DNA of 25,906 nucleotides from positions 1 through 25,906 of the IMG/VR virus record IMGVR_UViG_3300013126_002388; one strand, written 5' to 3'. How positions within the stretch are numbered: position 1 is the stretch's first letter; every line of letters starts with the position of its first letter. The notes under the pieces were generated by a model. It saw nothing but the letters and a program-made list of their open reading frames with translations. It had not been told where the DNA came from and did no database searches. Shown here in pieces: positions 9,980 through 24,708 of the stretch. The position numbers and the translations under genes were made by a program. Source of the stretch: a virus.

Positions 9980-10864
9980 TCAAATATATCTAACTGTACT
10001 TTGTGTGAACAGATTGATATTGTTGTTAATCAATACGTTATCGACTGCACGTTCAATCAATACTGACATTTCACTTTCTTGTAGTCTGTCAAACTGTTTT
10101 GTATTTTTTGTTACTTCCAACAACGATACAAATTCTTCATAAATAGCACTAGATAAATATTCTATAGTTAAACTAAGATTTTCTGGTGCGTCTGGTTCTA
10201 AATCAGATAAAGTAAAAAATAAATCTGGTTGTCTCACTTGTAGCTCATTTAATACAGCATCTATAAATTGTTGTACTTGTATTTGACCAGCTGCCGTATC
10301 ATTAATATTTACAATATCTCCCGCATCCACTCCTACTGTTCCAGCAACTAATCCTGCAGCTACTACTCTTGGAACAGAAGGTTCCGTAAATTCAAATAAT
10401 TCATTTTGTTCTGTTTGTGTAAATGCTGTGGTGAACCCCAATCGTAGTTCTGTTCTTGAAGGTGAAACTTCTTCAATAATCATTTTAGGATTAGTATATG
10501 AACCAATTTCATTAGAAAACAAATTTAAACTTACAGAATATGTTCCTGGTGGAACCAACAAACCAAGTTCTTTTTGAACTCTGGTCATATCAATAATTAC
10601 TTTTTCGTCTTTGGTTCCATCTGATAATAGTATAGTTCTTGCAGATATTATTCCTGTACTAACAGGTATTACTACAGAACCCACCAATCTATTAGCTGTG
10701 TCATAGAAATGCATTTCAATGTTATCATCAGAATTGAATCCAAACTGTCCTGGTATTCTACCTTGAATAATATCTGTATCATTTTCTGATTCCGCTATGC
10801 GTGAAACAGAAAATGCTTGTGGATTACCTGGAATTTGTTGGACGTAATTTTCTTGATTTGCCAT
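9980..10864 (-). CDS. Conserved tail/baseplate protein of unknown function
   Basis: Protein of 294 residues. The N-terminal 155 residues are beta-rich, with an IPGQFGFNSDDNIEMHFYD section and VPPGTYSVSLNLFSNEIGSY, ending in EVSPSRTELRLGF. That last motif resembles a conserved strand I have seen in hypothetical structural proteins of T4-like marine phages. The C-terminal half is more helical and acidic, with long segments such as LSSAIYEEFVSLLEVTKNTK, and ends in an amphipathic tail (VDNVLINNNINLFTQSTVRYI). No signal peptide, membrane segment or catalytic motif is visible. It is only 2 nt after the upstream gene and 8 nt before the Ig-array gene, so it is co-translated with them. A structural role is inferred from context only. 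Confidence 0.7.
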   Translation of the reverse strand: MANQENYVQQIPGNPQAFSVSRIAESENDTDIIQGRIPGQFGFNSDDNIEMHFYDTANRLVGSVVIPVSTGIISARTILLSDGTKDEKVIIDMTRVQKELGLLVPPGTYSVSLNLFSNEIGSYTNPKMIIEEVSPSRTELRLGFTTAFTQTEQNELFEFTEPSVPRVVAAGLVAGTVGVDAGDIVNINDTAAGQIQVQQFIDAVLNELQVRQPDLFFTLSDLEPDAPENLSLTIEYLSSAIYEEFVSLLEVTKNTKQFDRLQESEMSVLIERAVDNVLINNNINLFTQSTVRYI

Positions 10865-10866
10865 TG

Positions 10867-12159
10867 TTAATCACACGGTTTGTCTAATATTTTTTGTAAT
10901 TGCTTCGACGTTTCTTCAAGAACTTTGAGTGCTTGTGCTTTTGTCATCGGTTTACGACCCTTTGGTACAGTGGTTCTTGCTCCAGCTAATGTACCGACCA
11001 CTCCCGCAGCAATACCAGTAGCTGCCGCACCACCTCCTATAGCAGTAGCTGCTGCCGCAAGTGATGCACCACCAGTTACAGGTGCCAATGCTATTCCAGC
11101 AATAGCTCCTAAGAAACCAGCTTTAAATAATCCACCAGTTAATCTACCAAATGCTGTTGATTTTACAATTGGAATATGTGTTGTGATACCACTTTTTGTT
11201 GCAATAATTGTGTTGGTACTTGCTCGTTGTGCTTCAATATCTTGCTTTACTAAATCAAGTTTCTTTTGTGTGTCTGCACGTGACACTTTTCGTTCTTTTC
11301 TCTTACCAATTCCCAAAAATCCTTTCTTACCTTTTGCTACGGTAATAAATTTACAATTGCCATCTTCATCAACACCAGATTGTGATGATTCTTCCACAGC
11401 TTGAATACCATCGTTAAGAAGGCCGATTGCTTTATTGATAGTATCAATACCTCTTACCTTTTTATTACCAGGTAATAATGGTAGTTTTTGAATTAAATCT
11501 TCTTCTAATACTTCAGGTACAGGATCTATGATATCCTCTGCTGCGTCTGTAGTTCCGATATCATCGGTTAATCCTATTAAATCCAATGCACCTAATTCGT
11601 CTGCTTCGTCCTGTGATAATACTGATGCAGGGTCAGGTTCTTGGTCTATAATTGCCGATGCTAATCCTTCATCGATAGCTTGATTTGCTTCTTCAATTGC
11701 TGCTGGATCGCCACTATCGGATGCAGCTGCCAAATCATCCAATGCCAATGCTGCTTGCATTGCTGCATCGCGTTGTGCTTGTAAATCTGCTACATCTTCG
11801 TCAGGTACTTCTAAATCATCAGTAAGTTCTTGAAAAAAATTATCTATTGGTATTTCTCGATATACGTCACTAACCGTAGAAATTGGATATAGTTGCGGTG
11901 TTGTAATATCAACCGCACCTATAGGTAATTTAACTACAGGTACATTATTTGCAGTGTATTCTACAACACTTTGGCTTGGTAATCCCAGTACATCTGATCG
12001 ACTTGTTGCAATTTGTCTTGGTGTAAAAAATTGTGTTTCGGCAGTAAATTGAACAATTTCACCAGATGCCAGTGGTATATTTAGTACCAAATCTGATGAA
12101 CCCGTAGTAAAATCAGAAACCTCTACTATTGTTTTGTCTATTACATTTAACAATGCCAT
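10867..12159 (-). CDS. Tail-operon protein with acidic linker and glycine-zipper hydrophobic segment
   Basis: Protein of 430 residues, family not recognised. Residues 1-100 are beta-rich. Residues about 104-225 are a strongly acidic, Ala-rich low-complexity region. Residues about 265-300 are basic (KGKKGFLGIGKRKERK). Residues about 339-395 are a long Gly/Ala hydrophobic stretch with repeated small-xxx-small spacing (for example GFLGAIAGIALAPVTGG and GGGAAATGIAAGVVGTLAG), the pattern of a glycine zipper able to pack helices or insert in a membrane. The last 30 residues are a basic amphipathic helix. The start follows the upstream stop after a single nucleotide, with GGAAG in the leader. A tail protein delivered to the host membrane is one idea; an assembly chaperone or scaffold is another. 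Neither is shown. Confidence 0.65.
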   Translation of the reverse strand: MALLNVIDKTIVEVSDFTTGSSDLVLNIPLASGEIVQFTAETQFFTPRQIATSRSDVLGLPSQSVVEYTANNVPVVKLPIGAVDITTPQLYPISTVSDVYREIPIDNFFQELTDDLEVPDEDVADLQAQRDAAMQAALALDDLAAASDSGDPAAIEEANQAIDEGLASAIIDQEPDPASVLSQDEADELGALDLIGLTDDIGTTDAAEDIIDPVPEVLEEDLIQKLPLLPGNKKVRGIDTINKAIGLLNDGIQAVEESSQSGVDEDGNCKFITVAKGKKGFLGIGKRKERKVSRADTQKKLDLVKQDIEAQRASTNTIIATKSGITTHIPIVKSTAFGRLTGGLFKAGFLGAIAGIALAPVTGGASLAAAATAIGGGAAATGIAAGVVGTLAGARTTVPKGRKPMTKAQALKVLEETSKQLQKILDKPCD

Positions 12160-12160
12160 A

Positions 12161-12886
12161 TTACTTTACTTCCACAACTGAGAGTTGTTTGTCCATCGTC
12201 ATATTTTGTAAGTTTGCCAACTTTTCCATATATCCTGCTCGTCTTAATAACTTAAAAGCAAGATTTTCAGTGGAAAACTCTCCACCTTTTTCTAATCCAG
12301 ATTGTCTAAACTTACCCAACTTGTCTTTAAATTTTTCTATTTTTTTATCAAGACCATCCAATTGACCAGCCTTGTATTGATTTACCAATTGGTCAAACAT
12401 ACCAACAAAATATCGTACCTTGGTCATTACGTCTTGTTCATCATATACTGGTGCGTCTTTTTTTGGTTCTTTAATCCATTTATCTTTTAATACACTATAT
12501 AAACCCGTTGCTACGTGTGGTGAACTTTCATCTTCTGCGTATACTTCTACATCGTACCCTTTAATCGTGATGTCATGTTTATCGTTCCACTTTGATTTTG
12601 CTAACAAGAAAAATTGTGATAATACTTCTTTGTCTTTACCAAAGTCAAACAATAAATGGAGGTCAATGTCTGAGTAATCTGAGTAGTTGTAGTTTGCTAA
12701 ACTTCCCGTAAAAACTATATCTTTGACCTTTGGTTTGTTTTTCAACTCAATAGTGTCGTAAAACTCTTTTGCAATCTTCATAAGAGCTACCCGAAGTTTT
12801 GAATTCAGTTTATTTTCTGGTGTCCAAAACTCCCTATTCAAGTCAGGTTGTACCTTGAACGTTTTTAATAAATCGTCAAACGTCAT
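12161..12886 (-). CDS. Predicted nucleotidyltransferase (polymerase beta superfamily)
   Basis: Protein of 241 residues with the diagnostic core of the polymerase beta-type nucleotidyltransferase fold. A strand leads to the GS of FTGSLANYNYSDYSDIDLHL (GS at 61-62), followed by the metal-binding pair D73 and D75. The likely third carboxylate is E114 in GYDVEVYAED. The catalytic residues look intact, so it should transfer an NMP group to protein, RNA or a small molecule. The C-terminal half (about 140-241) is helical and Lys-rich and may bind the substrate, which is unknown. It lies one nucleotide from both neighbours, inside the tail operon between the DNRLRE-like protein and the glycine-zipper protein, so it is made with late structural proteins. 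No HEPN toxin partner is adjacent, which argues against a simple MNT antitoxin. Confidence 0.8.
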   Translation of the reverse strand: MTFDDLLKTFKVQPDLNREFWTPENKLNSKLRVALMKIAKEFYDTIELKNKPKVKDIVFTGSLANYNYSDYSDIDLHLLFDFGKDKEVLSQFFLLAKSKWNDKHDITIKGYDVEVYAEDESSPHVATGLYSVLKDKWIKEPKKDAPVYDEQDVMTKVRYFVGMFDQLVNQYKAGQLDGLDKKIEKFKDKLGKFRQSGLEKGGEFSTENLAFKLLRRAGYMEKLANLQNMTMDKQLSVVEVK

Positions 12887-12887
12887 C

Positions 12888-13925
12888 TTACTTCACCAAG
12901 AATGTAAATACTTCTGGTATTATGTTGGTGTCGGAGCTACCATTATTGATTTCTAGATTGACAGAATAGTATCTGTTTTTGTATAGGTCAGCCGTATCTA
13001 ATACAAAGAACGACCCCGTTGCATCGCAACTCAACTTTGCAAATTCATCAATTGGTGATACAGTTGTTCCTGCTTGTTTATCTACGATACCAAAATACGA
13101 TGAGGTCGGTAGATAATATCTACTTGCATAACGTAACGTAGCGTCAAAATTTTTACGTGGATACTTATCACGTACTATAAAACGAATTTTTTCTTTTGAT
13201 CCACGAATATATGTTTCCTTTGGATTTTTCGGAACTACTTCAATGTCATATGTACTTGGAATTGGTTTCAATGATCCAGTTGAGAACGTAGATGTATCCC
13301 AAACAGCTTCCAAAATTGGTGCGTGAACGGTATGTGTTTGTTTTGAAAAGAATTTAATATTTCCTTTATTTACATAATCTGCTTCCGATGCGGATGAAAA
13401 CTTAACTATAAATCCTTTAAAGTCTCTATTATTGAACAACACATCTTGCATAATGTTTGATACATCAACACGTAAATCTTGCATTGGATATTCGTTTAAT
13501 ACAACACTTGTTGATGGTGATGCATAATAATCACCACCCAATATACTCCACGATACACCCGCTGCTGCATTACTACCACTCCACGTTGCACCATCACGAG
13601 GATTTACATTTTGTTGAACAAAATATCCACTACCTTCTACCCAAGAACCAGAAATTTCATATATTTCTAGTTGTTGTGAATATGGCATTTTTTCTGCATT
13701 TGCTATCTTTAAATTAAGATAAAATGATGCCGTATCTGGAATTGACCCACTTGTTGGTAATGCAAAATCTACTAATGCACGTGCAGCACTGGCGCTATAC
13801 GCGATATCCAAATCTTCTGGTTTTGCTACTTTACCAACTTCTATAATTTCGTCCAGTCCAGTATTAATTAACGGATATCTCTTATAGATAGTTGTGTCTG
13901 CGGAGGCGGTTAGGAATAATCTCAT
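12888..13925 (-). CDS. Tail/baseplate protein with DNRLRE-like beta domain
   Basis: Protein of 345 residues. Residues about 6-210 match the layout of DNRLRE/CBM96-like beta-jelly-roll domains: ADTTIYKRYPLINTGLDE near the start, RALVDFALP, a LNLKIANAEKMPYSQQLEIY strand pair, the GSWVEGSG turn, and a TWS-rich loop. These domains occur in secreted carbohydrate-binding and wall-associated proteins. The C-terminal 130 residues form further beta strands, with a YPRKNFDATLRYASRYYLP section. The ATG at 13925 overlaps the stop of the gp6-like gene by 4 nt (ATGA), so translation is coupled to gp6. Placement directly after gp6 suggests a wedge-associated baseplate component. This placement is an inference; the domain call is by pattern only. 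Confidence 0.7.
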   Translation of the reverse strand: MRLFLTASADTTIYKRYPLINTGLDEIIEVGKVAKPEDLDIAYSASAARALVDFALPTSGSIPDTASFYLNLKIANAEKMPYSQQLEIYEISGSWVEGSGYFVQQNVNPRDGATWSGSNAAAGVSWSILGGDYYASPSTSVVLNEYPMQDLRVDVSNIMQDVLFNNRDFKGFIVKFSSASEADYVNKGNIKFFSKQTHTVHAPILEAVWDTSTFSTGSLKPIPSTYDIEVVPKNPKETYIRGSKEKIRFIVRDKYPRKNFDATLRYASRYYLPTSSYFGIVDKQAGTTVSPIDEFAKLSCDATGSFFVLDTADLYKNRYYSVNLEINNGSSDTNIIPEVFTFLVK

Positions 13926-15865
13926 TGTCTTGCACTTCCTACGATATCATCTTCTGGGTATCTAATCTCGAAGATACACGGGTCAAGTGATGGATATACG
14001 ACACCATCAACGGTTGCTTCTGCGATGTCATAACGATATGGTTGATAATCTCTGCCATCTTTAAAGAAATATTTATTAACTATTTCAATATTATTTACGC
14101 TTTGAACACCATCTTGTGCGTTTAATAACAACGACAAGTCACCTAAACGAATTGGTTGGTTAATGTTCCACTTATCAATGTCAAAGTAATCGTTAATAGC
14201 ACCAAGGCATACGGCTATAACGTCTGCCATATTATAGTTTTTGAATACTGTTATATCAAAATTCACACCGATATTAACAACAAATGCATCAAGAATATTT
14301 ACTTGGTCTGTGAGCATTCTATATTGTGACAGATATTGTTGAAGGTTTGATTTAACCAAACTGTTTAGTGTAGCAATTTTCTTGTTTTCGTTGTATCCTA
14401 AAACATACAAATTAATTGCATTTGGTTTTGGATTATTTTCAACATATTGTCGAATACTAGCGTCTTGTTGTTCTGGTGAAGCTTCTTCTTGAATTTTACT
14501 TTGTAGGCTATCGGAAATTGCAAACACTTTTGCTACGGCACCAAATTGTGCTGGCATTGCTAAAGTTCTTGCTTCGTAATCTCTACGAGTTACTATACGA
14601 TTTTGTGCACTGTAACTTGCTAATGCACGTTGACGAATTTCTTCTACACTTTCTCCATCTTGCCCACCTGTGGCTGGCATTTCGTTAAATACTGTTACTG
14701 TATTTACTATATCGTTAAATAAATCAAGTTCTGTTTGATTAAATTCTGTTGTTCTATTTAAAATATTTAACTGTCCGGTTTGTACAATTGTTCCCGATGC
14801 TACATTACTACCAACTCCACCACCTGTAAAATAAGTAACTGTAATAGTTGTATTTGCTGGTGCTAAACCAAAATTATCGGTATTTAACAAGTCAGTATTA
14901 CTTAATGATACACTTGCTAATTGTGTTCCATATTCTGAATTTGCTACTTGTTGTGAATCAAGATATACAATATCTTCCGATGCATTACCTCGACCAGAAC
15001 CAAATATTAACTGTGTTCTTTTATCTGGTGTTAATCGGGTTACAAATCTTCGTGGAACAGTTCTAAACTTCATTGCGTATGATGGGCTGACCGATTCACT
15101 AACCGCTGCTGTGTATGATACTTCTTTGTCGTCAATAATAGTATCTTGTGCTAAATATTCTACTTCATGCCATCTATACCCGTCTGCATCCACGACTTCG
15201 CTAATAGATGTTATGTTTGTATCACCGACAGTAATAGTAGAAAACTTTTCTGGGTCACCAAATGTAAATGTTTCTTGTCGAATGTCACCCGCAATTACTT
15301 TAACTTTTTTAGTAACCAAATAAGTTAAAGGTAACAAAGTTACAGAATCCAATTGTCTTGGTGCAATAATTCTGTCAGTTGGGTCTGCAAAATCTACAAT
15401 TTCTGTTGTTCTAAATGTTACTACGTTTGGTGCTAATGTTGACATTGTTGAATTTCTATCTATTTTCAAGAAAAAATTTGCATCAGGAATGTATCCATCT
15501 TCTGCACCAAGAGCAGGAACTACTTGTGAAATTAATACCTCTGCTGTTGCCGGAATTATTGTTTTTGGTTTATATCCCATTGCTTGTGCAATAGTAATAA
15601 TATTACCTTCTTGTTCTGCATATGCTAGTAAATTTTCTTTAAAAGAGTTATCTACGTAAAAAGATAGTACATCACCAACATATGCTGCTAATTCTAACAT
15701 AATCATACCTGGATTTGCTTCGTTAAAATCGGTCCAGGTTGTAGGATAGTAATTTTTAATAAAAGTAATTAAATCACCTTTGAAGTCAACAAATGACTTA
15801 TTGAGGTAACTAACTTCCTTTGGTGTTACACTTAGTTTGTTTAGTACGTTATTGGTTGTAGCCAT
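13922..15865 (-). CDS. Baseplate wedge protein, T4 gp6-like (baseplate J family)
   Basis: Protein of 647 residues, close to the 660 of T4 gp6. The N-terminal region (about 45-105) has the family pattern: NPGMIMLELAAYVGDVLSFY, VDNSFKENLL and an AQAMGYKPK motif. The middle is beta-rich with LIFGSGRGN near 286-294, the equivalent of the F-G-dG-xG turn of baseplate J proteins. Residues about 394-440 hold NEMPATGGQDGESVEEIRQR and NRIVTRRDYEARTL, the strongest J-family signature. In T4, gp6 dimers form the inner ring of baseplate wedges, contacting gp25 and gp53, and drive the dome-to-star transition. It follows gp25 by 3 nt and overlaps the next gene by 4 nt, as expected for co-assembled wedge proteins. 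Confidence in the family is high. Confidence 0.92.
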   Translation of the reverse strand: MATTNNVLNKLSVTPKEVSYLNKSFVDFKGDLITFIKNYYPTTWTDFNEANPGMIMLELAAYVGDVLSFYVDNSFKENLLAYAEQEGNIITIAQAMGYKPKTIIPATAEVLISQVVPALGAEDGYIPDANFFLKIDRNSTMSTLAPNVVTFRTTEIVDFADPTDRIIAPRQLDSVTLLPLTYLVTKKVKVIAGDIRQETFTFGDPEKFSTITVGDTNITSISEVVDADGYRWHEVEYLAQDTIIDDKEVSYTAAVSESVSPSYAMKFRTVPRRFVTRLTPDKRTQLIFGSGRGNASEDIVYLDSQQVANSEYGTQLASVSLSNTDLLNTDNFGLAPANTTITVTYFTGGGVGSNVASGTIVQTGQLNILNRTTEFNQTELDLFNDIVNTVTVFNEMPATGGQDGESVEEIRQRALASYSAQNRIVTRRDYEARTLAMPAQFGAVAKVFAISDSLQSKIQEEASPEQQDASIRQYVENNPKPNAINLYVLGYNENKKIATLNSLVKSNLQQYLSQYRMLTDQVNILDAFVVNIGVNFDITVFKNYNMADVIAVCLGAINDYFDIDKWNINQPIRLGDLSLLLNAQDGVQSVNNIEIVNKYFFKDGRDYQPYRYDIAEATVDGVVYPSLDPCIFEIRYPEDDIVGSARQ

Positions 15866-15868
15866 TTG

Positions 15869-16339
15869 TTATCCCTGTCTAAACGTATCTGTTGGTAATT
15901 GTTGTCTGCTTGTTGTTCTACCAGAAACTACCAACCCACCACCAACAGTAGTATTCAATTGTAATTGAATTTCATCTGAGACGAGTGGATTATTTGTAAA
16001 TCCATATTTCACATATAAATTTATACTATTGTCATTTAAAAACGTCAAAATGTTCGTAATTTCTATACTTTGAAGTGATAGATATGGCATGAATCGTTGT
16101 ACGGCTTCGATTACATACTGTTGTGCCAAATCTTGCAATTCCCCATCCTTTTGTTCAAATAATAATCTCCACAAGTCACATCCAAAATCTGGATTTGACA
16201 CACGTTCTCCTTTTTTTGTCAATATTAAATTGATTAATTTTGACTTTTCATTTTCTAAAGCACTCGTAGTGGATTGAAAATATCCACGAGTACCTCTGTT
16301 TAGTGGGAGTATTTGACCTAGATAGGTAGTTGTTGACAT
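15869..16339 (-). CDS. Baseplate wedge subunit, GPW/gp25 family
   Basis: Protein of 156 residues (T4 gp25 is 132). The core at about 27-90 is diagnostic: ENEKSKLINLILTKKGERVS, then PDFGCDLWRLLFE, matching the gp25 pattern in which GER and a PdFG turn form the conserved EPR-type motif. LSLQSIEI and INLYVKYGF strands follow. The C-terminal 30 residues (about 127-156) are a Gly/Thr/Arg extension beyond the usual fold. In contractile tails, gp25 sits in the inner baseplate ring, interacts with gp6 and gp53, and nucleates sheath assembly. The gene lies one nucleotide after the 115-residue gene and 3 nt before gp6, the conserved 25-6 order. Confidence 0.92.
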   Translation of the reverse strand: MSTTTYLGQILPLNRGTRGYFQSTTSALENEKSKLINLILTKKGERVSNPDFGCDLWRLLFEQKDGELQDLAQQYVIEAVQRFMPYLSLQSIEITNILTFLNDNSINLYVKYGFTNNPLVSDEIQLQLNTTVGGGLVVSGRTTSRQQLPTDTFRQG

Positions 16340-16340
16340 G

Positions 16341-16688
16341 TTACTTTACTAGTCCCATCTTTTTCATTAATGCACTGTAGTCTTTAGTTATTGCCTCGAC
16401 TGCTGGTTTTACAGATGGATTATTTAAATCAACACCTTGCGGTATATTTTCTGGAAGCACCATATTTTTTGTGGTTGCTGTAATGGTATCTCCATGACGT
16501 TCCAATCCCATCAACGCTGCCAATCTTGTACGGTCAATCTTTGATTTGGTTGGAGTAGCAACAGTTTCATTAACTTGTTGTGTTCCTTTGATTTGAGATA
16601 CAGCTTCACCCAATAGTTCTGGAAGAATTCTATTGACTTCTTCTTCCACAATGGTTCTGATGTATGCTTTTAGTAATGTTTTGTCCAT
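16341..16688 (-). CDS. Small helical protein upstream of gp25, unknown
   Basis: Protein of 115 residues, family not recognised. Residues 1-32 form a charged amphipathic helix (MDKTLLKAYIRTIVEEEVNR), a middle section is polar and Thr/Lys-rich, and the C-terminus ends in a second helix (KDYSALMKKMGLVK). No membrane segment or signal peptide is present. The start at 16688 is strongly supported by AGGAGAG 5-10 nt upstream. It follows an 84-nt gap containing repeats and a palindromic AT box, so it probably begins a transcript or is controlled there. It ends one nucleotide before gp25. By position it could be a baseplate assembly factor, as gp53 is in T4, but I see no sequence evidence for gp53. 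Confidence 0.65.
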   Translation of the reverse strand: MDKTLLKAYIRTIVEEEVNRILPELLGEAVSQIKGTQQVNETVATPTKSKIDRTRLAALMGLERHGDTITATTKNMVLPENIPQGVDLNNPSVKPAVEAITKDYSALMKKMGLVK

Positions 16689-22309: not shown

Positions 22310-22550
22310 ATAAAAGCGGGCGTAAATCGTTGACCGTATCCACTATTTGATTGAAAACAGACCCTACTTCATCGTCTTTCTCAAACATTTCTCGTGAGTC
22401 AATAGCCCGCATAGTTTTTAATGTTCTATCTAAACGGGTGTAAAAGATATCTATGGCATCTTCCATAAGCTCGTTCTTACGCAACATATTCCAACATGCG
22501 TAACCGAGGGCTCCATTAGCTAAAATACTGATGATGAATAATACTATCAT
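22263..22550 (-). CDS. Small membrane-anchored protein of unknown function
   Basis: Protein of 95 residues. Residues 2-22 (IVLFIISILANGALGYACW) form a single hydrophobic transmembrane segment at the N-terminus. The rest is a soluble acidic domain with helical stretches (NELMEDAIDIFYTRLDRTLK) and a Glu/Asp/Asn-rich tail. The ATG overlaps the stop of the lysozyme-like gene by 4 nt (ATGA), so the two are translationally coupled. It overlaps the sigma gene by 47 nt if the longer sigma start is used. Coupling to a cell-wall enzyme makes a lysis-associated role (holin-like or spanin-like) conceivable. A pinholin normally has two transmembrane segments, and only one is seen here, so this is speculative. 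It could instead anchor an unrelated function. Confidence 0.7.
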   Translation of the reverse strand: MIVLFIISILANGALGYACWNMLRKNELMEDAIDIFYTRLDRTLKTMRAIDSREMFEKDDEVGSVFNQIVDTVNDLRPLLYGSNTEDGEKENEAR

Positions 22551-23071
22551 ATCTTCTGTAAGTTATAGATTGAGAATGTTTGCATATACTCACGAATACT
22601 CGTGCCGTTTGCATCCGTTCGTCCATTCCTATCATCGTTTTGGAAAAAGAGCTTCACATTTGCCGAACCTGCTAAATGTGCCGCTGCCAATACACCAGAC
22701 CGTGTAACTTTCACACCCTTGAACTTCTTATTTTCGTATTTAGTGATTAGTGTGTTTAGTTCTTTATTGTTTGACCGTAAATAAGCTACCATTACAGAGT
22801 CTTGGAGTTCTGGGTTGGATAGGAACTGGTTTCTTGTGACTCGAAACCCAAGAACTTTAACCGTGTTGGGATGAAACTGGTACTTCCCCATCATACCAAA
22901 ACGATTGACCACATGCGGAGTGTTATCACTCTCACGTTCTGCCATATGGTCAAGAAACTTTTCTAACTCTGTTGGTTCTGACCGAACAATACGATTCGGT
23001 ATATAGACTTCATTAATCTTTAACATTACGAGAACCGTTAATATACTGAGAACGGTTATTAATTTTTTCAT
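22547..23071 (-). CDS. Membrane-anchored lysozyme/transglycosylase-like protein
   Basis: Protein of 174 residues from the ATG at 23071, which has a perfect AGGAGG 5 nt upstream. A longer reading from 23110 would overlap the purine gene upstream and has no such site. Residues 1-19 (MKKLITVLSILTVLVMLKI) are a signal peptide or uncleaved signal anchor; no clear AxA cleavage site is seen. Residues about 38-75 read like a lytic transglycosylase/lysozyme fold: LDHMAERESDNTPHVVNRFG and MGKYQFHPN, with E45 or E47 as candidate catalytic acid. SGVLAAAHLAGSANVKLFF (about 125-143) and the DANGTSIREY tail at about 153-162 fit the same fold. It would cut peptidoglycan from the periplasmic side. A signal-arrest-release endolysin is one plausible reading. 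Confidence 0.75.
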   Translation of the reverse strand: MKKLITVLSILTVLVMLKINEVYIPNRIVRSEPTELEKFLDHMAERESDNTPHVVNRFGMMGKYQFHPNTVKVLGFRVTRNQFLSNPELQDSVMVAYLRSNNKELNTLITKYENKKFKGVKVTRSGVLAAAHLAGSANVKLFFQNDDRNGRTDANGTSIREYMQTFSIYNLQKI

Positions 23072-23084
23072 ACTATCCTCCTGT

Positions 23085-24101
23085 TTAGAGAAGATGCGGT
23101 CGTGCCTCATTTACTCCTGCTTGGGTCACGACAACATATTCTGGGAAATATTCACCGAGATTGTTTGCTCCTGCATAAGACAACGCCGACCTTACACCAT
23201 CTAACAAACCTTCTATAATGAACTTTACACCACCCTTAAACGGAACAACTGTAGATTCTCCTTCCACATTTCTCTTTGCTTGACCGTGAATACTCTTCGT
23301 TTCCAACGATGCGGCTCCACGATACCGCTTATACAACCCATTCTGCTTCTCAATAATTGCTCCAGGCGCTTCTTTTGTTCCTGCGATAAGTGACCCAAGG
23401 ATTACTGAGTTTGCTCCAACTCCCAACGCCTTTGCAATATCACCACTTGACCGAATACCACCACATGCAATAATAGGGACACTTACACTACCTGCACAAT
23501 CTTGGAGTGAGGTCACGTTGGGAACACCAAATCCCGTCTTGATACGAGTAGTGCAGAGTGACCCACCACCGATACCGACACGAATGGCATCTGCTCCCGC
23601 CGATTGCAGATTATATGCAGCGTCACCCGTTGCAACATTTCCTGCGATAACATCAACATTTAATGGAAGAAGATTCTTTAAATTACGAATTGCATCCATC
23701 ACAAACTGATGATATCCGTGTGCGACATCAATTAAAATAATATTCGCACCTGCTTTGACCAACTCTCGTGCTCGTTCCAAGTAATCACCATTTGCACCAA
23801 CTGCTGCCATTACTACCGCGTCTTGCACCGCAGTTCTTACTTTTTTGACTTCCAACACTTGTTCTTCTATTGTATTAAATCGGTGAATACATCCTACTCC
23901 ACCAAGTTCTGCCATTGCGATTGCCATTTCACCATCACATACCGTATCCATCGGGGATGCAATAAGAGGAACGTTGATCCTATAATTAGTTGTTAATTGT
24001 GTAGATAGGTCAATTGTGCTACGTGATTCGATACTCGAAAACGCAGGTATCAACTGGATATCATCATACGTGAGTGCTTGCTTACCGTGTAATTGTGTCA
24101 T
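23085..24101 (-). CDS. CBS-less IMP dehydrogenase / GMP reductase family enzyme
   Basis: Protein of 338 residues with a TIM barrel of the IMPDH/GMPR family. Residues 11-20 (TYDDIQLIPA) and PLIASPMDTVCDGEMAIAMA (about 45-64) are family signatures. The active-site loop is GGGSLCTTRIKTGFGVPNVT (about 178-197) with catalytic Cys183. ACGGIRSSGDIAKALGVGAN (about 212-231) binds the nucleotide phosphate. The VEGESTVVPFKG segment near 279-290 resembles the EG-rich loop of GMP reductase more than the flap of IMPDH. The two CBS domains of IMPDH (normally about 120 residues inserted near residue 95) are missing. It may convert GMP to IMP (GMP reductase) or IMP to XMP; I lean to GMP reductase but cannot decide. 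It overlaps the glycosyltransferase by 20 nt and precedes the cell-wall enzyme by 13 nt. Confidence 0.85.
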   Translation of the reverse strand: MTQLHGKQALTYDDIQLIPAFSSIESRSTIDLSTQLTTNYRINVPLIASPMDTVCDGEMAIAMAELGGVGCIHRFNTIEEQVLEVKKVRTAVQDAVVMAAVGANGDYLERARELVKAGANIILIDVAHGYHQFVMDAIRNLKNLLPLNVDVIAGNVATGDAAYNLQSAGADAIRVGIGGGSLCTTRIKTGFGVPNVTSLQDCAGSVSVPIIACGGIRSSGDIAKALGVGANSVILGSLIAGTKEAPGAIIEKQNGLYKRYRGAASLETKSIHGQAKRNVEGESTVVPFKGGVKFIIEGLLDGVRSALSYAGANNLGEYFPEYVVVTQAGVNEARPHLL

Positions 24102-24708
24102 AATATGCGTTTTGCTCCCGCTGTCTCTTGATGTCCTTGATATGATACAAACTCCATTCTTCTTCTGCTGGTAGTGGTGCGTGCGTTTGATATCCTACAA
24201 TCCGTTCATGCACTTTACCTTCCCATCTAATACGGTCTACATTTTTATACAATCTGGTTTGATAATCTGGAAACATTACCCAACCCTTTTCATCTATGAC
24301 CCAACCCCATCTACTCACATCGTCGTCAGTCAAACCGCTTACGACATTCACCCGTGGGATTAGGAACAAATCTACGTTCGTATTATTATACACTATATCG
24401 TGTAGATAAGTCAAGAGGTTGTTATGGAATTTTTCATCAGCATCAACTTGGAAGATGTAATCACCTTCGCATAACGAATTCACATAATTCTTGTGTGCTG
24501 CGAAATCGTTGTTTAGTGCGTGTGAATACAACTTGATTTTATCTTGTTCTTCATACCCATATAATAGTTGGGACGTAAATACATCTGTCGAATGGTCATC
24601 AACCACAACAATCTCATCCCCTGTTCTTTCGCAGTGAGGAATGAGTTGGTCAAGTAATTCTTGAATATACTGACCTTCGTTATGTGTTGTGATTGCAAAT
24701 GAAATCAT
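24082..24708 (-). CDS. Family 2 glycosyltransferase (GT-A fold)
   Basis: Protein of 208 residues with the GT2 layout. The N-terminal strand MISFAITTHNEGQYIQELLD is followed by EIVVVDDHSTD (about 32-42, nucleotide binding) and the metal-binding FQVDADEKFH (about 86-95). A C-terminal acceptor region follows, with RLYKNVDRIRWEGKVHERIV. Length is typical of a short single-domain enzyme. It likely uses a nucleotide-activated sugar; the acceptor (host envelope glycan, virion protein or DNA) cannot be told from sequence. It starts with ATG overlapping the UVDE stop by 4 nt and overlaps the IMPDH/GMPR start by 20 nt, so the three genes are co-transcribed and translationally coupled. There is no membrane segment, so it acts in the cytoplasm. 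Confidence 0.85.
   Translation of the reverse strand: MISFAITTHNEGQYIQELLDQLIPHCERTGDEIVVVDDHSTDVFTSQLLYGYEEQDKIKLYSHALNNDFAAHKNYVNSLCEGDYIFQVDADEKFHNNLLTYLHDIVYNNTNVDLFLIPRVNVVSGLTDDDVSRWGWVIDEKGWVMFPDYQTRLYKNVDRIRWEGKVHERIVGYQTHAPLPAEEEWSLYHIKDIKRQREQNAYYDTITR

What the first reader, a model, noticed from the sequence alone, without database searches (positions are those of the whole stretch)
12161..12886. Intact nucleotidyltransferase embedded in a baseplate/tail operon
The GS pair, D73/D75 and a likely third acid (E114) of the polymerase beta-type nucleotidyltransferase fold are all present. The gene sits one nucleotide from structural genes on both sides, so it is expressed with the late tail proteins. 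T4 has no such enzyme in this cluster. It could NMP-modify a virion or host protein, modify tRNA, or be carried into the cell. No HEPN partner is next to it, so a toxin-antitoxin reading is weak.
Basis: partly seen in the sequence, partly recalled or inferred. Interest (0 to 1): 0.7.

Follow-up and report, generated by a model that had tools for sequence, protein, structure and literature searches.

The report
Phage nucleotidyltransferase, probably carried in virions
A virus of bacteria carries an intact enzyme of the kind that attaches nucleotides to other molecules; the gene stays with virus-particle genes in most relatives that could be placed, and a relative's protein was found in purified particles, so the enzyme is probably shipped into the cell at infection, but its target is unknown.

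Summary
Window 12161-12886 (-) encodes a 241-aa polymerase-beta-type nucleotidyltransferase (NTase): Pfam NTP_transf_2 just above cut-off, PHROG 36119 (unknown function) at 6e-41, confident AlphaFold model whose best solved matches are NTases. D73, D75 and E114 are invariant in 64/64 homologues, found without reference to those residues; dN/dS is 0.06-0.08. One base separates it from each neighbour. The family is phage-borne (Cyanobacteria, Bacteroidota and Caulobacter phages, Lak and other huge phages; >=576 IMG/VR stretches).

The baseplate position is not general. In 30+ relatives with the same upstream gene the NTase is absent from this slot. In the sister lineage it lies between portal/prohead protease and major capsid protein; in many others upstream of terminase/portal; elsewhere it is fused to HIGH-type nucleotidyltransferase, ligase-fold, peptidase or peptidoglycan-binding domains. 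So it is portable, mostly late-region cargo, not a tail part. In cyanophage S-CREM2 the homologue (ORF156, filed as 'hypothetical') was detected by mass spectrometry in CsCl-purified virions with two neighbours.

Best reading: a virion-carried effector NTase acting early in infection (Alt-like logistics). Packaging of the window protein, injection and substrate are inferred. RlaP, MNT/HEPN antitoxin and baseplate-component readings are not supported.

The parts
12161..12886 (-). Polymerase-beta-type nucleotidyltransferase, 241 aa (G61-S62, D73, D75, H77, E114; C-terminal helical part with R194, E203, N208, F211-K212, R215)
12888..13925 (-). 345-aa gene directly upstream (1 base gap), found with the gp6-like gene in nearly all contigs where both would fit; probable tail/baseplate protein, no family match
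13922..15865 (-). gp6 / baseplate J-like wedge protein, 647 aa
   Evidence: PF04865 1.3e-4, phrog_219 5.2e-22
15869..16339 (-). gp25-like baseplate wedge protein, 156 aa
   Evidence: PF04965 2.6e-12, phrog_261 2.5e-17
16341..16688 (-). 115-aa gene of unknown function at the head of the closely packed run of - strand genes
10867..12159 (-). 430-aa gene directly downstream (1 base gap), fast-evolving relative to the NTase (dN/dS 0.19 against 0.07)
9980..10864 (-). 294-aa gene; its homologue follows the 345-aa gene by one small ORF in phages that lack the NTase, so it marks the far side of the insertion

Best explanation
The gene encodes a catalytically competent polymerase-beta-type nucleotidyltransferase that is late-expressed virion cargo. 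It is made with the particle proteins, carried in the virion, delivered with the DNA, and transfers a nucleoside monophosphate to a host target at the start of infection, as T4 Alt does with ADP-ribose. Shown: fold, invariant catalytic acids, purifying selection, position within a close-packed baseplate run, detection of a homologue in purified virions of another phage, and repeated residence among head, packaging or tail genes. Inferred: packaging of the window's own protein, injection, NMP chemistry, substrate. On substrate I lean weakly to RNA ends, such as tRNA 3' ends (about 0.4), over a host protein hydroxyl (about 0.35), because relatives fuse the NTase to a ligase-fold domain; no direct evidence separates the two.
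For: Fold: PF01909, phrog_36119, AF2 pLDDT 90.6, Foldseek to AAD(9) 7e-4, MNT 8xeo prob 0.98, 2rff prob 0.99. D73/D75/E114 in 64/64; dN/dS 0.06-0.08. Virion: S-CREM2 ORF156 (126012-126725, the NTase homologue) had 6 unique peptides, 15.2% coverage, in CsCl-purified virions, with ORF155 (5 peptides) and cytidylyltransferase ORF154 (3); the only protein listed under 'DNA replication and metabolism' was Cas9, which argues against bulk cytosolic carry-over (PMC10665884 Table 3). Context: sister lineage (tree support 99) has the NTase between portal/prohead protease S77 and major head protein; about 25 of 56 NTase groups lie upstream of terminase and portal. Co-delivery: L061 fuses in one ORF the NTase, a HIGH-type domain and a KxDG ligase-fold domain; the last two form one 937-aa protein upstream of terminase in the window's own lineage.
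Against: No proteomics exists for the window's lineage; the MS homologue is 37% identical and has GG for GS. The S-CREM2 authors caution that such proteins could be highly expressed and co-purify. In Kyanoviridae the gene lies near gp43 or between gp55 and nrdA, not among structural genes, and in L063 next to a DnaB-like helicase and nrdA. About 14 of 64 sampled homologues have contexts I could not assign. The window protein has no recognisable capsid-targeting or prohead-protease site at its N-terminus by eye.
Confidence: 0.58

Rival explanations
1. The NTase is not packaged. It works in the infected cell late in the cycle, for instance modifying phage structural proteins, host proteins or tRNA, and its place in a late operon only sets its timing.
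For: Replication-region position in Kyanoviridae, Cr30 and L063; S-CREM2 authors allow co-purification.
Against: MS detection of the S-CREM2 homologue with almost no replication proteins; fusions to peptidoglycan-binding and M23 domains and head-cluster position fit particle residence better.
Confidence: 0.22
2. It is an RNA-repair enzyme, adding nucleotides to damaged RNA ends for a partner ligase (works like RlaP), whether packaged or not. This overlaps with the best explanation as regards substrate.
For: L061, L068, L206 and L060 put the NTase in one ORF with a KxDG ligase-like domain; the AF2 model of that domain returns RNA/DNA ligases as nearly all of its first 42 PDB matches, though none at E<0.001; the domain is encoded in 4 of 5 window-lineage contigs searched.
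Against: RlaP PF10127 never matches the NTase place; W09, W12 and W07 have a separate RlaP. 39 of 52 NTase-bearing records lack the KxDG domain and the MS-positive cyanophage has no PF09414 ligase. Other fusion partners are unrelated to RNA.
Confidence: 0.3
3. MNT-type antitoxin of a HEPN toxin-antitoxin pair.
For: Weak NCBIfam MntA hit (14.3 bits against a cut-off of 60); MNT structures among Foldseek hits.
Against: No HEPN-like neighbour in the window or in the commonest contexts; the recurrent upstream 80-aa protein looks KTSC-like. The protein is twice the length of MNT and has a conserved extra C-terminal part.
Confidence: 0.03
4. A structural baseplate component that happens to have an NTase fold.
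For: One-base spacing and fixed order in this lineage.
Against: Catalytic acids invariant; absent from the same slot in phages with the same baseplate run; located elsewhere in most relatives.
Confidence: 0.04

Closest known systems
PHROG 36119 (unknown function; includes cyanophage and huge-phage homologues)
   Same: Full-length homology, same invariant residues
   Different: Nothing essential; this is the family. It has no assigned function and I found no paper describing it.
T4 Alt ADP-ribosyltransferase (packaged and ejected effector)
   Same: Macromolecule-modifying type of enzyme, late gene; Iyer 2017 notes Alt-family genes lie near baseplate genes
   Different: Different fold and chemistry; packaging and ejection proven for Alt (PMC9026906), only suggested here
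Polyvalent proteins with Pol-beta NTase domains (Iyer et al. 2017, PMC5512222)
   Same: Pol-beta NTase combined in relatives with unrelated enzymes near late genes
   Different: Those NTases are minimal, usually fused to ArdC-N, mainly in Firmicute mobile elements; the window protein stands alone and has a large conserved C-terminal part
Aminoglycoside/spectinomycin adenylyltransferases (AAD(9), AadA, KNTase)
   Same: Best full-length Foldseek matches; NTase core plus C-terminal helices
   Different: TM about 0.26, 14% identity; no reason to expect a drug substrate
RlaP (PF10127) RNA-ligase-associated NTase
   Same: Pol-beta NTase of large phages, linked to ligases
   Different: No sequence match; some phages carry both at separate places

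Membership tests
Polymerase-beta nucleotidyltransferase superfamily | G-S/G-G motif, DxD and third acid on the core sheet | tested here: met
   D73, D75, E114 in 64/64; S/G at 62; PF01909 above cut-off
Polymerase-beta nucleotidyltransferase superfamily | Core fold | tested here: met
   AF2 pLDDT 90.6; Foldseek NTases at top, core matches 2rff prob 0.99, MNT 0.98
Polymerase-beta nucleotidyltransferase superfamily | NMP transfer activity | not testable with these tools
   needs assay
PHROG 36119 | Full-length profile match | tested here: met
   6.1e-41, residues 9-236
RlaP (PF10127) | Profile match | tested here: not met
   No match at the NTase place in 39 records; true RlaP elsewhere in W07, W09, W12
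MNT/HEPN toxin-antitoxin | MntA model above cut-off | tested here: not met
   14.3 bits against a cut-off of 60
MNT/HEPN toxin-antitoxin | Adjacent HEPN gene | tested here: not met
   Neighbours in window and relatives
Packaged, ejected effector (Alt-like logistics) | Present in virions | tested here: inconclusive
   Shown by MS for the S-CREM2 homologue (PMC10665884); not for this phage
Packaged, ejected effector (Alt-like logistics) | Late-gene location | tested here: met
   Baseplate run here; head or packaging region in many relatives
Packaged, ejected effector (Alt-like logistics) | Delivered to the host cytoplasm | not testable with these tools
   needs infection experiment
Polyvalent proteins | Two or more unrelated domains in one polypeptide | tested here: not met
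   Window protein has the NTase module only; met in relatives L047, L060, L061, L068, L099, L109

The most novel reading that the evidence does not exclude
A family of virion-borne nucleotidyltransferases, shared by phages of several bacterial phyla and by huge phages, forms with a ligase-fold domain and a HIGH-type nucleotidyltransferase a packaged enzyme kit that repairs or rewrites host RNA ends (or NMPylates host proteins) in the first minutes of infection.
Probability: 0.2. Interest if true: 0.8.

Novelty: new variant of a known kind. Interest (0 to 1): 0.55.

Why it matters
Packaged phage effectors with known chemistry are few (Alt, virion RNA polymerases, some kinases and SAM hydrolases). 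A conserved nucleotidyltransferase family linked to virions in several ways would add a chemistry, and it is testable because an isolated phage (S-CREM2) and its published proteome already exist. It also gives phrog_36119, until now without function, a concrete hypothesis, and links it to a very common but undescribed ligase-fold plus HIGH-domain late protein.

Tried and rejected
Toxin-antitoxin: no HEPN neighbour, MntA far below cut-off. RlaP membership: no match. Defence system: PADLOC gives only weak NTase-domain hits. Plasmid-borne relatives: none. Cellular origin: 10 relatives in the scan of 84,980 genomes, most with the same neighbours as the phage contigs; L128, L130 and L132 not resolved. 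Late-promoter search: TATAAATA is not enriched and not near the gene; sigma-70 and terminator scans show no excess. PDB sequence search with the ligase-like profile found nothing credible; only fold comparison did. A small motif (KRSKSAP-like) beside the NTase occurs in only four loci and was not pursued. The polynucleotide-kinase PHROG hit of the 227-aa gene that fills the NTase slot in G001 was not backed by Pfam and is not used. Looking for the 345-aa gene in the sister-lineage contigs found nothing, but those contigs are short.

Full report
WHAT IS THERE. The ORF 12161-12886 (-) is 241 aa with ATG start, one base from the 345-aa gene upstream and one base from the 430-aa gene downstream. 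The run of - strand genes is 115 aa, gp25-like, gp6/J-like, 345 aa, NTase, 430 aa, 294 aa. Pfam NTP_transf_2 is just over its cut-off (22.3 against 21 bits); PHROG 36119, unknown function, matches residues 9-236 at 6e-41. With 51 IMG/VR sequences AlphaFold gives pLDDT 90.6. Foldseek against the PDB returns spectinomycin adenylyltransferase AAD(9) (7e-4), CD-NTases, the MNT antitoxin, 2rff, CCA-adding enzyme, KNTase and AadA. Whole-chain TM-scores are low (about 0.26); it is the core that matches.

IS IT INTACT AND SELECTED. D73, D75 and E114 are identical in 64 of 64 distinct homologues down to about 31% identity, as are D56, S72, H77, S131, W137, R194, N208, F211, K212 and R215. The viral scan used patterns that do not contain the three acids. 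Seven of 64, the six cyanophage rows and Cr30, have GG for GS. Within the lineage dN/dS is 0.06-0.08; the genes compared on the 3' side, of 430, 294 and 515 aa, are at 0.17-0.35.

WHO HAS IT. 45 of 50,697 phage records: Lak phages, other huge phages, 14 Synechococcus phage records (Kyanoviridae), Maribacter phages, Caulobacter Cr30, one marine single-cell virus. No plasmid hits. Ten hits in 84,980 cellular genomes, most with phage-type neighbours such as the c44/c45/c46 genes and terminase.

WHERE IT SITS. In the window lineage the order gp6, 345 aa, NTase, 430 aa is fixed in nearly all contigs long enough to show it. But in contigs whose 345-aa homologue is 32-50% identical and whose downstream side is held, the NTase is never there; in most of them a small ORF of about 80-140 aa and then the 294-aa homologue follow. 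So the NTase was inserted, perhaps with the 430-aa gene. The closest outside relatives (L041, 60%; L027, L043-L045, 46-50%) carry it between portal/prohead protease (the G001 homologue of c27 is Peptidase_S77, 8e-27) and the major head protein (phrog_138), in a block syntenic with the 148-kb window-lineage contig G001, where that slot holds other genes. The tree puts L041 with the baseplate clade and both with the portal-capsid clade (99, quick tree, SH-aLRT only). In about 25 of 56 groups it lies some genes upstream of terminase and portal. Kyanoviridae and L063 have it in replication or nrd regions, which is the main exception.

FUSIONS. In L047, L060, L061 and L068 the NTase is inside 900-1300-aa ORFs with HIGH-type nucleotidyltransferase, DUF192, zinc-protease-like or KxDG domains; in L099 it is joined to a peptidoglycan-binding domain, in L109 to Peptidase_M23. 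On the tree fused/solo changes at least 8 times, with the caveat that some 'fused' rows are counted as fused only by ORF length (400 aa or more). The KxDG domain has EKxDGQ, RNK and EG motifs, weak PF09414 matches at the same spot in six contigs, and an AF2 model whose first 42 PDB matches are nearly all ligases, best E 8e-3, probability up to 0.98: ligase fold likely, not proven. In G001 this domain and the HIGH domain make a 937-aa protein upstream of terminase; L061 joins both to the NTase. 60 of 80 KxDG loci have the HIGH domain in the same ORF.

VIRION EVIDENCE. Table 3 of the S-CREM2 paper (PMC10665884) lists ORF156 at 126012-126725, which is the NTase homologue, with 6 unique peptides and 15.2% coverage, next to ORF155 and the cytidylyltransferase ORF154. 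The authors call ORF156 hypothetical and warn that some such proteins might co-purify. Apart from Cas9 no replication and metabolism protein is listed, which makes gross contamination less likely. The capsid-targeting and prohead-protease logic of T4 (PMC9026906) would be one route into the head, but I saw no such site in the window protein, and did not test it formally.

INTERPRETATION. Most of this fits a portable enzyme that phages keep with particle genes and that, in one case, was found with the particle. I therefore favour packaged effector (0.58). What it modifies is open: ligase-fold fusions hint at RNA, the MNT and ANT resemblance at protein or small molecule. In polyvalent proteins the partners are functionally unrelated (PMC5512222), so fusion partners speak for joint delivery more than for a joint pathway. 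As a packaged nucleotidyltransferase it would be a new variant of a known kind, packaged host-modifying enzymes.

Noticed in passing
window 23085-24101 (-): IMP dehydrogenase / GMP reductase family gene (PF00478 2.5e-98, phrog_9582 3.9e-100) among tail-region genes, next to a GT2 glycosyltransferase (24082-24708) and an SLT transglycosylase (22547-23110).
   Followed up: no
L122:146-2959 (G001) and L137-L216: A 900-970-aa late protein with a KxDG ligase-fold domain and a HIGH-type cytidylyltransferase-like domain lies upstream of terminase; at least 566 IMG/VR stretches encode the KxDG domain, and only its cytidyltransferase part has a PHROG name.
   Followed up: partly
L052, L057, L082, L087: A KRSKSAP/SAPPG-like short motif in a basic linker lies beside the NTase domain in four loci only; possible processing or targeting site, function unknown.
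   Followed up: no
L122:13764-15291 (G001): The slot between prohead protease and major head protein that holds the NTase in L041/L043/L044 holds other small genes in the window lineage, one a weak polynucleotide-kinase PHROG hit; L043 has that gene elsewhere, on the opposite strand.
   Followed up: partly
L128 (WOR-3 MAG CP070664.1): An NTase homologue lies in a 2.8-Mb bacterial MAG without the usual phage neighbours; prophage, mis-binning or real transfer not resolved.
   Followed up: no
L035:12301-13194 (S-CREM2 ORF160): ORF160, also a virion protein by MS, shares a 24-residue stretch with residues 63-86 of the S-B68 major capsid protein, which may be a capsid-targeting or cleavage region.
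   Followed up: no
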